Origin: an uncultured Trueperaceae bacterium
Lineage (GTDB): Bacteria > Deinococcota > Deinococci > Deinococcales > Trueperaceae
Reading direction: 5' to 3'
Length of the DNA: 53,702 nucleotides
Assembly: GCA_913057165.1 (NCBI GenBank)
Contig: CAJXNS010000007.1
Location: 1-53,702 of the forward strand
A model generated the notes under the pieces. The model searched no databases and was not told the origin of the DNA. It saw only the letters and a program-made list of their open reading frames with translations. The position numbers and the translations under genes are program-made. Position 1 is the stretch's first letter. Each line of letters begins with the position of its first letter. This document shows, piece by piece, positions 24,539 through 29,115 of this stretch.

Positions 24539-24922
24539 TTACGCCTCCTGACAGTCGCTGCAGATGCCGTAGAGGGTTAACTCGTGATCTTCGACGCGAA
24601 AGCCGCCAGGCAGGGTGACGCCTTGCAGGATGGCCACTGGGCATTCGCCTTCAAGTTCAAACACGTGACCGCATTCTCGGCAGCGGAAGTGGTGATGGTG
24701 TGCACGACCGGCCGGTTCGTAGCGCGGGGGGTCTTCAGGCAGGTGCACGGCGACGACGTCACCTTTTTCTTCGAGACGGTTGATGTTGCGGTAGACGGTT
24801 GCAAGCCCGAGGGTTGGGTGAAGCTGTCCGGCACGCTCATGAATTTCACCAGGCGTCAGCGGGCCAGGTGCCTCGCTGAGCGTCTTTAGGATGGCGTCGC
24901 GTGGGGCGGTTTTGCGTTCCAC
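24539..24922 (-). CDS. Fur-family metalloregulator (Zur-like)
   Basis: 127 aa. An N-terminal winged helix (LTPGEIHERAGQLHPTLGLATVYRNINRLEEKG, of which LATVYRNI is the recognition helix) is followed by the dimer/metal domain with HHHHFRCRECGHVFEL and ICSDCQEA. The two CxxC pairs form the structural zinc site. The family senses Fe, Zn, Mn or peroxide; the zinc importer 1.5 kb away makes Zur the favoured guess, unproven. GTG 24922 follows TAAAGT by 6 bases. It appears to lead an operon with a YibE/F protein, a Yip1-like protein and a hydrolase. Confidence 0.88.
   Translation of the reverse strand: MERKTAPRDAILKTLSEAPGPLTPGEIHERAGQLHPTLGLATVYRNINRLEEKGDVVAVHLPEDPPRYEPAGRAHHHHFRCRECGHVFELEGECPVAILQGVTLPGGFRVEDHELTLYGICSDCQEA
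24544..24549 (-). promoter_or_regulatory. Shine-Dalgarno AGGAGG deciding the YibE/F TTG start
   Basis: AGGAGG inside the last codons of the regulator gene, 10 bases before TTG 24533. This suggests translational coupling. Confidence 0.6.
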
Positions 24923-26010: not shown

Positions 26011-26265
26011 ATGCCAAGAGTTTGTGCGGTCACGGGTAAGAAGACGCGTTCTACGCGCACCAGCAAACGTAAGGGTTCACCGAAGAAGCGCGGCGGTGTC
26101 GGCGTCAAGCAGGTTGGCGTGCACAAGCGCGAAGTGAAACCCAATTTGCAGAAGAAGACGGTGTGGGTGGATGGCAAGCCGCAGCGCGTGTGGCTTTCCG
26201 TTAAGGCCATGCGGTCAATGGATCCTAGCCTGTTCGTCAATCCAAGCAAACTGTCTGAATCGTAA
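26011..26265 (+). CDS. rpmB: 50S ribosomal protein L28
   Basis: 84 aa. It starts MPRVCAVTGKKTRS, is basic (KRKGSPKKRGG), and ends with KTVWVDGKPQRVWLSVKAMRSMD, which matches L28 proteins of the Deinococcus/Thermus group. It binds 23S rRNA in the large subunit. It has only one cysteine, so it cannot form the CxxC zinc ribbon found in some L28 forms. A GAGAGGA lies just before ATG 26011. It is monocistronic, with a two-box promoter and a hairpin terminator. Confidence 0.95.
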   Translation: MPRVCAVTGKKTRSTRTSKRKGSPKKRGGVGVKQVGVHKREVKPNLQKKTVWVDGKPQRVWLSVKAMRSMDPSLFVNPSKLSES

Positions 26266-26299
26266 GTTTTTCCCTGCTTCTGGCAGGTTAGTCACGTGT

Positions 26300-26323
26300 C
26301 GGTCGGCCTGAAAAGGCCGGCCG
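26300..26323 (+). terminator. Intrinsic terminator after rpmB
   Basis: A 10-bp stem (with one G-T pair) closes the loop GAAA and is followed by ATTTGCTTT. It lies 35 bases after the rpmB stop. Confidence 0.7.
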
Positions 26324-26344
26324 ATTTGCTTTGCATGGGTGCGG

Positions 26345-26373
26345 TTGACAGGGTCGGTTCGACGCAGTAAAGT
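26345..26373 (+). promoter_or_regulatory. znuACB promoter (TTGACA, 17 bp, TAAAGT)
   Basis: A consensus -35 TTGACA (26345-26350), an exact 17-bp spacer and -10 TAAAGT (26368-26373). The znuA ATG at 26380 is 6 bases later, so the mRNA should be leaderless or nearly so. It is the strongest promoter by consensus in the window, as expected for one switched off by a repressor. Confidence 0.75.
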
Positions 26374-26379
26374 TCACCC

Positions 26380-27522
26380 ATGTTGAGAAACAATTATCAA
26401 AAACCGGCCGTTGGTCACCCCAAGCCCCTCAACGCACGAATCATGCAGACCCTCGCCGTGCTGCTTGCCGCCGTTGGGATCGGTCACGTCGCAGCCGAGG
26501 GCACGCTGGTGGTCTCGATGGAGCCATACCGAGAGGTCGCTGAAGCCTTGGCGCCAGCAGGTACCGAAATCCGCGTGGTGCTGCCGTCAGGTCAAAGCCC
26601 GCACGCCTATGAACCGGCACCCAGCGATGCGGCCGCCCTTGAGGATGCCGACCTCGTGATTTTCAACGGCGGTGTTGATGAATGGATGACGTCGCTCATC
26701 GCAACCGTCGGGTCCAGTCAGCGAGTGGTGCGTGCGGCGGATGCGGCTGAGGCCCTTGACGCCAATCATGAAGGGGCGCATGACCACGACGAGCATGACC
26801 ACGATGAGCATGACCACGACGAGCATGACCACGGCGAGCACGACCACGACGAGCATGACCACGAAGAGCACGATCACGATGAGCATGACCACAGCGAGAG
26901 CGAAACCGCTGACCACAATCATGAAGTGGTTACACATGATCATGAGGATGTGCATGAAGCTGAATCATCAGATCAAGCACATGATCATGGTGACCATGAC
27001 CACGACCACGACGGCGACCTTCACGTTTGGCAAAGCATTGCGGTGATGAAGCACGTGGCAGAAGACGTCGCCGACGCTCTGGTCGATTTGCACCCTAGTG
27101 AAGCCGACGCCATCAACGCCGCCCTAGCCGACTACATCCAACACCTCAATGAGCTCGATCAAGAACTGGAAGCCACCTACAGCCAAGTGCAAGGCCGCCC
27201 AATGGTCTTCATGCACGGCGCCTGGGACCGTCTGGTAGAACGCTACAACCTCAATCAGGTCGCCATCATCGAGCCGTTCCCCGGCCGCGAACCGACCGCC
27301 AGCTACCTAGCTGACGTCCTGCAAACCATCGAGGATTCAGGCGCCAACGTCATCTTCAGCGAACGCCAACTCAACCCCCGGCCCGCCACGGTGATTGCAC
27401 AAGAGGCTGGCGTGCAGGTTGCGGTTCTGGATCCGGTGGGCGGAGGCGACACGGGCGGCTACACTGACATGATGCTCCACAACGCACGTACCATCGTCAA
27501 TGCGCTAAGCGCCACAGAATGA
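26380..27522 (+). CDS. znuA: Zinc ABC transporter substrate-binding protein
   Basis: A 380-aa cluster A-I metal-binding lipoprotein-like or periplasmic protein. The signal peptide core is QTLAVLLAAVGIGHVAA (residues 23-39), behind an unusually long n-region of 21 residues. Zinc ligands are expected at His in GQSPHAYEPAPSD, His in VFMHGAWDRLV and the C-terminal Asp in DPVGGGDTGGYTD. Residues 135-169 are seven DHxEH pentapeptides, the flexible His/Asp-rich loop typical of ZnuA. ATG 26380 is used because of the -10 spacing; ATG 26443 just before the signal core is the alternative. It is followed by znuC and znuB. Confidence 0.94.
   Translation: MLRNNYQKPAVGHPKPLNARIMQTLAVLLAAVGIGHVAAEGTLVVSMEPYREVAEALAPAGTEIRVVLPSGQSPHAYEPAPSDAAALEDADLVIFNGGVDEWMTSLIATVGSSQRVVRAADAAEALDANHEGAHDHDEHDHDEHDHDEHDHGEHDHDEHDHEEHDHDEHDHSESETADHNHEVVTHDHEDVHEAESSDQAHDHGDHDHDHDGDLHVWQSIAVMKHVAEDVADALVDLHPSEADAINAALADYIQHLNELDQELEATYSQVQGRPMVFMHGAWDRLVERYNLNQVAIIEPFPGREPTASYLADVLQTIEDSGANVIFSERQLNPRPATVIAQEAGVQVAVLDPVGGGDTGGYTDMMLHNARTIVNALSATE
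26383..26400. promoter_or_regulatory. Candidate Zur/Fur operator inside codons 2-7 of znuA
   Basis: TTGAGAAACAATTATCAA is an 18-bp interrupted palindrome of the form TTGA-n-AA-nnnn-TT-n-TCAA. It is AT-rich in a GC-rich genome, as Fur-family boxes usually are. It starts about 10 bases after the -10 box, where a bound repressor would block RNA polymerase. Confidence 0.55.
26782..26886 (+). repeat. 15-bp tandem repeat encoding DHDEH in znuA
   Basis: Seven in-frame copies of a unit close to GACCACGACGAGCAT, with an eighth decayed copy after. Codons vary between units at third positions, so the repeat is under coding rather than nucleotide-level constraint. Confidence 0.9.
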
Positions 27523-27529
27523 AACGGTG

Positions 27530-28276
27530 ATGCCAACAAGACCCCCGGCGCTTGAGCTGGACGGCGTGACCCTCCAAAAGGGTGACGCCGTCATCCTTGA
27601 CGACATCACCTTGTCACTCGAGCGGGCGCGCTTCCTCGCCATCATCGGACCCAACGGCGCAGGTAAATCAAGCCTCGTCAAGATCCTTCTCGGAATCGAT
27701 CACCCCACCCAGGGCTCGGTCGCTGTGCTCGGAAGTCCACCCGGTCACCACGCCAAACGTGCGGCCTACGTGCCGCAACTCAAAACCTTCGACAGGTCGT
27801 TCCCAGCCACGGCGATTCAGCTGGTTGTCTCAGGAGAACGGCAAGCCTGGCCTGCGCGCACCACCGCCCGCGAGCGCGAACAAGCCCTTGAGGCCCTCAC
27901 GGAGGTCGGTGCTGAACACCTGGCGGACCGGCCACTTGCACGCCTCTCCGGTGGCGAGCTGCAACGCACCTACCTGGCACGCGCCCTGGTCCGAAAACCT
28001 GAACTGGTCGTGCTTGACGAGCCCGCGACGGGCGTTGACTTCATGGCCGAGCACGACCTCAACCACCTGCTTGAGGCGTATCAGGACAAGACACAAGCGA
28101 CGGTGGTCATGGTCACGCACGACCTAGCCGCCGCTCGTCACCATGCCACCGACGTGCTGGTTCTTAATCGCACGGTCGTTGGTTTCGGTGAGCCCGAACG
28201 CGCACTCTCAGACGAGTGCTTACGGCGCGCCTATGGTCATGTGGGGCACGCCCACAGTGGGTTTGTCGCATGGTAG
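27530..28276 (+). CDS. znuC: Zinc ABC transporter ATPase
   Basis: A 248-aa ABC ATPase. Walker A is GPNGAGKSS, the signature is LSGGELQRTYLARALV, Walker B is LVVLDEPATGVD, and the H-loop His is in VMVTHDL. The sequence fits the metal-type ATPases (ZnuC/MntB/TroB). It energises uptake through ZnuB on the cytosolic face. It starts 7 bases after the znuA stop and overlaps znuB by 7 bp. An adjoining GTG at 27527 could also serve as start. Confidence 0.95.
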   Translation: MPTRPPALELDGVTLQKGDAVILDDITLSLERARFLAIIGPNGAGKSSLVKILLGIDHPTQGSVAVLGSPPGHHAKRAAYVPQLKTFDRSFPATAIQLVVSGERQAWPARTTAREREQALEALTEVGAEHLADRPLARLSGGELQRTYLARALVRKPELVVLDEPATGVDFMAEHDLNHLLEAYQDKTQATVVMVTHDLAAARHHATDVLVLNRTVVGFGEPERALSDECLRRAYGHVGHAHSGFVAW

Positions 28277-29115
28277 TCACTCTATTTGAAGCGCTTGACT
28301 ACGCCTTCTTTCAACGGGCCTTGCTCGGTGGGTTACTCACCGCTGTTGCGACCGGCATGCTGGGTGTGTTCGTCGTCCAACGCGGCCTGGCGTACCTTGG
28401 TAACGGCCTGGCCCACGCCTCGTTTGGCGGCCTTGCACTCGGGGCGCTGATCGCGAGCTTGACGTCCGCCCAAGGCATCCTCCGCGAACCGTTATGGATC
28501 GCCCTGCCGTTTACCCTAGCGGTGGCCGCGGCGATCGCCTATGTGCGCGACCGCACCAGACTCTCAAGCGATACCGCCATCGGCGTGTTTTTCGCTGTGT
28601 CCGTCGCCCTTGGGATTCTGTTCCTGTCACTGATACCGCCAGACGACAACGTGATCGACGTGTGGCACCTGCTGTTTGGCTCCATTCTTGCGGTCGGTCC
28701 ACGCGAACTCGTGTTCATCGCGGTGATGGCCGCCATGACGGTGGCGGTCCTAACCGCCACCTGGGGACGACTCGCGTACGCCACCTTTGATGAGGAACTC
28801 GCACAAAGCGACGGCGTGCGCGTCCGCCGGCTTGAGTACGGCCTTTTTCTGTTGGCTGCCGTGGTGGTGGTCGTCAGCGCCCAAGTGGTCGGCATCATTC
28901 TGCTTGCGGCGTACCTGATTATCCCCGCTGCCAGCGCACGCCTGCTGTCTACCAGCCTGCTGCAGATGACCGTCTTGGCGGTCGTGTTTGGGGTCGCCAC
29001 CACCGTCATCGGTCTCTTTACGTCCTACCTTGCCGACGTACCAAGCGGTGCCGCGATTGTGCTACTGCAGGCCGCCTTGTTTGCGGTCGCTGCCTTGATC
29101 AGCCGGCGGCCCTAA
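28270..29115 (+). CDS. znuB: Zinc ABC transporter permease
   Basis: A 281-aa ABC-3 family permease with about eight membrane helices. Family hallmarks are FVVQRGLAYLGNGLAHASFGGLALG near residue 35 and VGIILLAAYLIIPAASARLL near 210. It forms the channel of the ZnuABC importer in the inner membrane. ATG 28270 lies inside the end of znuC. Its TAA overlaps the ubiD stop by 4 bp tail to tail (CTAA), with no hairpin between. Confidence 0.95.
   Translation: MVVTLFEALDYAFFQRALLGGLLTAVATGMLGVFVVQRGLAYLGNGLAHASFGGLALGALIASLTSAQGILREPLWIALPFTLAVAAAIAYVRDRTRLSSDTAIGVFFAVSVALGILFLSLIPPDDNVIDVWHLLFGSILAVGPRELVFIAVMAAMTVAVLTATWGRLAYATFDEELAQSDGVRVRRLEYGLFLLAAVVVVVSAQVVGIILLAAYLIIPAASARLLSTSLLQMTVLAVVFGVATTVIGLFTSYLADVPSGAAIVLLQAALFAVAALISRRP

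What the first reader, a model, noticed from the sequence alone, without database searches (positions are those of the whole stretch)
26345..26400. Zur/Fur-like operator embedded in the first codons of a leaderless znuA
TTGACA-N17-TAAAGT puts the transcription start at or near the znuA ATG (26380). The palindrome TTGAGAAACAATTATCAA then occupies codons 2-7 (L-R-N-N-Y-Q). It is AT-rich against a GC-rich background and follows the strongest promoter seen. With no leader available, the operator would have to be coding sequence, which would explain the odd 21-residue n-region in front of the signal peptide core. Operator sequence acting as N-terminal codons is an unusual constraint.
Basis: partly seen in the sequence, partly recalled or inferred. 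Interest (0 to 1): 0.7.

Follow-up and report, generated by a model that had tools for sequence, protein, structure and literature searches.

The report
Zinc-repressor operator inside znuA's first codons
In this bacterium and at least 20 related species, the predicted DNA switch that shuts off the zinc-uptake gene znuA when zinc is plentiful lies inside the gene's first protein-coding letters, often using the start codon itself as part of the switch, because the messenger RNA appears to have no untranslated front end.

Summary
TTGACA-N17-TAAAGT ends 6 nt before the znuA ATG (26380). The only exact match in the 1.78 Mb genome to TGAKAANNNNTTMTCA, TGAGAAACAATTATCA (26384-26399), lies in codons 2-7. 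Across 39 family genomes this pattern gives 30 sites against 5 for its reversed control, many at znuA, znuC, L33/L28 ribosomal-protein genes and a COG0523 GTPase: a Zur regulon. In 21 genomes of six genera the box lies in znuA's first codons; in 19 the start codon itself enters the box ([A/G]TG AGA ANN NNT TCT CAN). Of the 21, 20 have TANNNT 6-9 nt before the start, and all use the rare Arg codon AGA (2 of 405 Arg codons in the same genes' bodies). Other relatives carry the box in a 5' UTR. The Fur-family gene at 24539-24922 is the likely zur. Corrections: the box is 16 bp, not the 15-bp 7-1-7 Fur/Zur box, and it explains only six codons of the long n-region. Binding and transcription start remain untested. 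Zur-controlled leaderless znu genes are known, but with the box over the promoter, so this is a new variant.

The parts
26345..26350 (+). -35 element TTGACA of the znuA promoter
   Evidence: Sequence; promoter scan 10/12 with 17-bp spacer. TTGACA or TTGACG at 17 bp also in G035, G033 and G027.
26368..26373 (+). -10 element TAAAGT (TANNNT class), 6 nt before the start codon, as in leaderless Deinococcota promoters
   Evidence: TANNNT 6-9 nt before the start in 20 of 21 genomes with the box in the first codons. TANNNT peaks 6-9 nt before starts throughout the window.
26380..26382 (+). znuA start codon ATG and predicted transcription start (leaderless)
   Evidence: Position relative to the -10; no Shine-Dalgarno sequence between -10 and ATG. 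The transcription start is inferred, not mapped.
26384..26399 (.). Predicted Zur operator TGAGAAACAATTATCA (palindrome extends one pair to 26383-26400), codons 2-7 of znuA
   Evidence: Only exact genome match to TGAKAANNNNTTMTCA; conserved at the znuA start in 21 genomes of six genera; AGA codon in all 21 versus 2/405 background.
26380..27522 (+). znuA, zinc ABC transporter substrate-binding protein with a His/Asp/Glu-rich loop
   Evidence: Pfam PF01297 E 5.7e-58; relatives in all 39 family genomes.
27527..28276 (+). znuC-like ABC ATPase
   Evidence: PF00005; AztA/ZnuC-type hits below curated cut-offs.
28270..29115 (+). znuB-like ABC-3 permease
   Evidence: PF00950 E 8.5e-62.
24539..24922 (-). 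zur: Fur-family repressor, 127 aa, with two CxxC pairs; itself apparently leaderless (TAAAGT, 6 nt, GTG)
   Evidence: PF01475 E 1.9e-21; 60-70% identical to Fur proteins near znu loci or boxes in ten family genomes, about 30% to the genome's other Fur protein; promoter.
26298..26325 (+). Terminator-like hairpin between rpmB (L28) and the znuA promoter
   Evidence: 12-pair stem, 8 G-C pairs; would isolate znuA from upstream transcription (inference).

Best explanation
The element is the Zur operator of the znuABC operon. The sigma-70-type promoter at 26345-26373 starts transcription at or next to the A of the znuA ATG, giving a leaderless mRNA. When zinc is sufficient, a zinc-loaded dimer of Zur (the Fur-family protein of 24539-24922) binds TGAGAAACAATTATCA at about +5 to +20. 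There it lies in the path of RNA polymerase and blocks open-complex formation or promoter escape. When zinc falls, Zur releases and znuABC is transcribed. In this lineage Zur boxes lie just downstream of the -10 element; with no 5' UTR that position is coding sequence, so the box is written into codons 2-7 (here) or uses the start codon itself as part of its first half-site (19 relatives). The variable start of the signal-peptide n-region tolerates the encoded residues. Shown by sequence analysis: promoter, position, conservation, codon-level DNA constraint, motif shared with a zinc regulon, zur neighbourhood. Inferred: transcription start, zinc-dependent binding, repression, block of RNA polymerase.
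For: Single exact genome hit, at this site. Family-wide 30 box sites versus 5 for the reversed control, many at znuA, znuC, L33, L28 and COG0523 genes. [A/G]TG-overlapping box at the znuA start across genera. 20/21 with TANNNT 6-9 nt upstream; AGA in 21/21 versus 2/405 background; codon before the second half-site codon ends in T in 20/21 versus 5.4% T3. Same box within 5' UTRs of other family members and sister families. In G010, unrelated ZnuA and ZnuC start VRTRSQ and VRTSSQ, so DNA rather than protein function sets the residues. zur ortholog group near znu loci. Leaderless TANNNT rule shown by experiment for Deinococcus-Thermus (PMC12340547).
Against: No binding, footprint, zinc response or mapped transcription start is available. 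Eight genomes have no clear box near their best znuA (G001, G011, G019, G020, G022, G023, G029; G036 only a 1-mismatch site). The genome has a second Fur-family protein (C24:11425) that cannot be excluded as the binder. The conserved rows are related, so the effective sample is well below 21; the tree asks for at least three gains or losses of the coding arrangement.
Confidence: 0.86

Rival explanations
1. The palindrome acts as RNA: a hairpin at the 5' end of the leaderless mRNA controls translation.
For: A perfect palindrome with a 4-nt centre can form a 6-bp hairpin (e.g. G034, -4.7 kcal/mol).
Against: In this genome the predicted fold does not pair the palindrome arms and is no more stable than shuffles (z 0.24); none of six orthologues is clearly more stable than shuffles (z -0.93 to 1.84). 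Arms carry different non-complementary mismatches in different lineages (G/A here, A/C in g4, G/G in G031), and the box also occurs in 5' UTRs and between divergent genes.
Confidence: 0.03
2. The operator is real but is read by another Fur-family or metal regulator (Fur, PerR, Mur) rather than Zur.
For: NCBIfam and PDB searches of the window protein score Fur/PerR families above E. coli Zur, and a second Fur-family gene exists.
Against: Box targets are zinc genes (znuA, znuC, L33/L28 paralogues, COG0523). The window-type Fur gene sits near znu loci or boxes in many genomes. Hits include the M. tuberculosis FurB zinc-uptake regulator 2o03 and the Streptomyces protein 3mwm.
Confidence: 0.06
3. 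The conserved N-terminal residues (M-R-[TIM]-x-[SY]-[QHR]) are selected at protein level and the DNA palindrome is incidental.
For: R recurs in all 21 and S or Y in 19 of 21 ZnuA N-termini.
Against: AGA rather than CGN in 21/21 (background 2/405) and a T-ending next codon in 20/21; the same codons start an unrelated protein (ZnuC, G010) and a 25-codon mini-ORF (G027); the same DNA is found untranslated in other relatives.
Confidence: 0.02
4. Translation starts at M22 (26443) and the segment 26380-26442 is an ordinary 5' leader that holds the operator.
For: An in-frame ATG at 26443 begins a canonical signal peptide, and homology to relatives begins near there. The operator would still be real.
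Against: No SD or -10 before 26443; some relatives have no usable start other than the one at the operator before the mature region (G013, G014, G015); -10 to start spacing of 6-9 nt is conserved.
Confidence: 0.05

Closest known systems
Zur regulon of Corynebacterium glutamicum (cg0042, cg0043, cg2911; PMC2823685)
   Same: Zur-repressed znu genes with transcripts starting at the A of the ATG (leaderless), palindromic AT-rich box, regulon with a COG0523 GTPase.
   Different: There the 21-bp box overlaps the -35 or the entire -10/-35 region; here the box lies just downstream of the -10, in the first codons, often including the start codon, and is a 16-bp 6-4-6 repeat in another phylum.
Actinobacterial 7-1-7 Zur box (S. 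coelicolor TGAAAATGATTTTCA, quoted in PMC2823685)
   Same: TGA...TCA half-sites, AT-rich, recognised by a Fur-family dimer.
   Different: 15 bp with a central base; the present box is 16 bp with a 4-bp variable centre, and the Fur-type consensus TGATAATNATTATCA has no match within 3 mismatches in the window.
Leaderless TANNNT promoters of Deinococcus-Thermus (PMC12340547) and DdrO/RDRM repressor sites (PMC5552922, PMC8072749)
   Same: -10 element directly before the ORF; DdrO sites may overlap the -10 motif or lie near or over the transcription start.
   Different: The RDRM examples read place the motif upstream (starting at -30 to -38 from the start codon), not inside the first codons; no start codon shared with an operator was found described.
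Operators inside coding sequence such as lac O2 and gal OI in E. coli (general knowledge, not looked up)
   Same: Repressor site written into codons.
   Different: Those are auxiliary or downstream sites in leadered genes; here the only known operator is next to +1 and forms the N-terminus.

Membership tests
Zur operator / Zur regulon | Palindromic box shared by zinc-uptake genes and ribosomal-protein paralogues or COG0523 GTPases | tested here: met
   sites at znuA, znuC, L33 (four genomes), L28 (one), COG0523 (one); 30 sites versus 5 reversed control. Gene names of relatives read from sequence, not scanned.
Zur operator / Zur regulon | Classical 7-1-7 (15-bp) spacing | tested here: not met
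   Box is 6-4-6 (16 bp); TGATAATNATTATCA has no match within 3 mismatches in the window.
Zur operator / Zur regulon | Fur-family protein with two CxxC structural zinc motifs encoded near the regulon | tested here: met
   PF01475 1.9e-21; CREC and CSDC in the sequence; ortholog group near znu loci or boxes.
Zur operator / Zur regulon | Zinc-dependent DNA binding and repression | not testable with these tools
   Needs EMSA or footprint and a zur deletion.
Leaderless Deinococcota gene | TANNNT -10 element about 6-9 nt before the start codon, no SD | tested here: met
Leaderless Deinococcota gene | Mapped transcription start at the start codon | not testable with these tools
   No transcriptome for this genome.
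Operator within coding sequence | DNA-level constraint on codons independent of the encoded residues | tested here: met
   AGA 21/21 versus 2/405; T-ending codon 20/21 versus 5.4% T3; unrelated genes share the same first codons.

The most novel reading that the evidence does not exclude
A class of start-codon operators: in this Truepera-like family of Deinococcota the Zur half-site and the initiation codon share bases, so one 16-bp element specifies repressor binding, the initially transcribed region, the start of translation and the first residues. It has recurred in unrelated genes (znuA, znuC, and a 25-codon mini-ORF whose stop overlaps the znuC start in G027), as part of a general rule that promoter-proximal operators become N-terminal sequence wherever leaders are absent.
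Probability: 0.7. Interest if true: 0.6.

Novelty: new variant of a known kind. Interest (0 to 1): 0.52.

Why it matters
It shows how a phylum rich in leaderless genes accommodates repressor sites: the operator stays at its promoter-proximal position and the protein's N-terminus adapts. It is a clean natural case of overlapping codes (operator, start codon, signal-peptide n-region) that can be tested by synonymous recoding. It supplies a predicted Zur box and partial regulon for a family in which I found none described, and it helps gene-start annotation, since an RTGAGAA....TTCYC start marks the true N-terminus.

Tried and rejected
Fur-type 7-1-7 consensus TGATAATNATTATCA: no match in the window. 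RNA hairpin: not supported. The second 1-mismatch genome hit, C11:7967, lies inside a 437-codon open frame and looks like chance. Extra RTGAGAANNNNTTCYCR hits in G001, G002, G005:C74, G007:C417, G010:C30, G021, G025, G027:C92 and G038 lack a -10 at the right place and most of their open frames are short, so they were treated as chance. The genome-contig search for znuA returned distant homologues from other phyla, of no use for footprinting. Paper searches for an operator overlapping the start codon of a leaderless gene found none in the held library; many subscription papers are not held, nor was the D. deserti leaderless-mRNA paper.

Full report
Observation. The sequence carries TTGACA (26345-26350), a 17-bp spacer, TAAAGT (26368-26373) and, six bases later, the ATG of a 380-codon znuA (26380-27522). 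The palindrome TTGAGAAACAATTATCAA (26383-26400) reads TTG AGA AAC AAT TAT CAA, codons 2-7. Upstream lies rpmB (L28, 26011-26265) followed by a strong terminator-like hairpin (26298-26325); downstream are a znuC-like ATPase and a znuB-like permease. The 18-mer is among the 0.04% most AT-rich six-codon stretches of the window's genes, and its synonymous spelling has probability 3.5e-5 under local codon usage (AGA is 2.2% of Arg codons).

Comparative test. The window is part of a 1.78 Mb, 106-contig genome (G000) with 38 other genomes in its family. One of them, G036, has a contig of 3,260,398 bp, which I recall as the size of the Truepera radiovictrix chromosome, so the family is probably Trueperaceae (memory, not tested). 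ZnuA relatives exist in all 39. Reading their start regions shows the same palindrome at the start of znuA in 21 genomes of six genera. In 19 of these the start codon is itself part of it: ATG AGA ATG CAT TCT CAA (G034, a perfect palindrome), ATG AGA ACG AGT TCT CGA (G014), GTG AGA ACC GAT TCC CAA (G006), and so on. In this genome and G035 an additional ATG codon precedes it (ATG TTG AGA ...), keeping the same codon register. G018 may be a further case, starting at GTG. Pattern searches make the point genome-wide: TGAKAANNNNTTMTCA has exactly one hit in this genome, the znuA site, and 30 sites in the 39 genomes against 5 for the reversed control; RTGAGAANNNNTTCYCR mostly gives a single hit per genome, at the znuA start.

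Leaderlessness. In 20 of the 21 cases a TANNNT hexamer ends 6-9 nt before the start codon (the exception, G010, has TATCCA), and in the window TANNNT peaks sharply 6-9 nt before candidate starts. zur and pyrE in the window have the same layout. This is the leaderless promoter class shown experimentally for Deinococcus-Thermus (PMC12340547). No mapped transcript is available for this genome, so leaderlessness is a strong inference rather than a fact.

DNA, not protein, is constrained. The Arg codon in the first half-site is AGA in 21 of 21 cases although AGA is 2 of 405 Arg codons in the bodies of these genes. The codon before the second half-site codon (TCT, TCC, TAT, TGT or CCT) ends in T in 20 of 21 cases, against 5.4% T at third positions. 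The two residues over the variable centre differ widely. In G010 the unrelated proteins ZnuA and ZnuC begin VRTRSQ and VRTSSQ from the same kind of box, and in G027 a box with its own -10 opens a 25-codon mini-ORF whose stop overlaps the GTG of znuC. In other relatives (G012, G037, G038, G028, G026, G002) and in sister families (G047, G043, G045, G046) the same box lies just before znuA in what looks like a 5' UTR. Rows are not independent; a ZnuA tree requires at least three changes of the coding state.

What reads it. Box-bearing genes include znuA, znuC, L33 paralogues (four genomes), L28 (one) and a COG0523 GTPase (one), a Zur-type gene set (gene names outside the window were read from their sequences, not searched against a family library). 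The window's Fur-family gene (PF01475, 1.9e-21) is 60-70% identical to Fur genes near znu loci or boxes in ten family genomes and about 30% identical to the genome's second Fur protein. PDB neighbours include M. tuberculosis FurB/Zur (2o03) and a Streptomyces metal-uptake regulator (3mwm, Zur from general knowledge), but Fur and PerR families score higher in sequence searches, so the assignment rests on context.

Mechanism. Zn-loaded Zur bound at about +5 to +20 would lie in the initially transcribed region and block RNA polymerase; zinc starvation would release it. Because Zur boxes in this lineage sit just downstream of the -10 and there is no leader, the box becomes N-terminal codons. The signal-peptide n-region is a permissive place: n-regions are longer in orthologues with a coding operator (median 15 versus 3 residues, Mann-Whitney p 1.3e-4, not corrected for relatedness). 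The operator itself is only six codons, so it does not explain the whole 21-residue extension.

Rivals. An RNA hairpin is not supported by folding or by the pattern of mismatches. A protein-level signal is contradicted by codon choice and by unrelated genes sharing the codons. Start at M22 would make the element an ordinary leader operator but lacks an SD or promoter and has no counterpart in some relatives. Another Fur-family reader is possible.

Prior art. C. glutamicum Zur controls leaderless znu transcripts, but its boxes overlap the -35 or -10/-35 elements (PMC2823685). Deinococcus RDRM/DdrO sites lie near or over transcription starts. I found no description of a Zur or other operator sharing its bases with the start codon of a leaderless gene in the held library, with the caveat that many papers are not held. 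I therefore call this a new variant of a known kind.

Noticed in passing
L113/L185 (G027:C19), minus strand around 28240-28256: A Zur box with its own TAGAGT -10 opens a leaderless 25-codon mini-ORF (MRTRSQGSRRAQAGVTRLPGQTAAA) whose TGA stop overlaps the GTG start of znuC, suggesting translational coupling from an operator-encoding leader peptide.
   Followed up: partly
L108 (G010:C55), minus strand: znuC starts GTG AGA ACC AGT TCT CAA with TAGCAT 7 nt upstream, giving an N-terminal extension VRTSSQ... on an ABC ATPase, parallel to VRTRSQ on its ZnuA.
   Followed up: partly
L118, L120, L121, L134 (L33); L115 (L28); L132 (COG0523); L111 (ArsR-like): Exact TGAKAANNNNTTMTCA boxes next to ribosomal-protein paralogues, a COG0523 GTPase and an ArsR-like gene, outlining a Zur regulon for the family.
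   Followed up: partly
26760-27020: ZnuA contains a long His/Asp/Glu-rich repeat (HDHDEHDHDEHDH...), a presumed zinc-binding loop.
   Followed up: no
26011-26265: rpmB (L28) directly upstream of znuA has one cysteine and an SD-type start; L28 carries a Zur box in G029 but no box was seen here.
   Followed up: no
L062 (G035), znuA start: Two overlapping box-like palindromes, TGAGAATGAAATCTCA and TGAAATCTCATTATCA, in the first codons.
   Followed up: no
24922 and 25860, minus strand: zur (GTG) and pyrE (ATG) each have TANNNT exactly 6 nt before the start codon, so they too look leaderless.
   Followed up: yes
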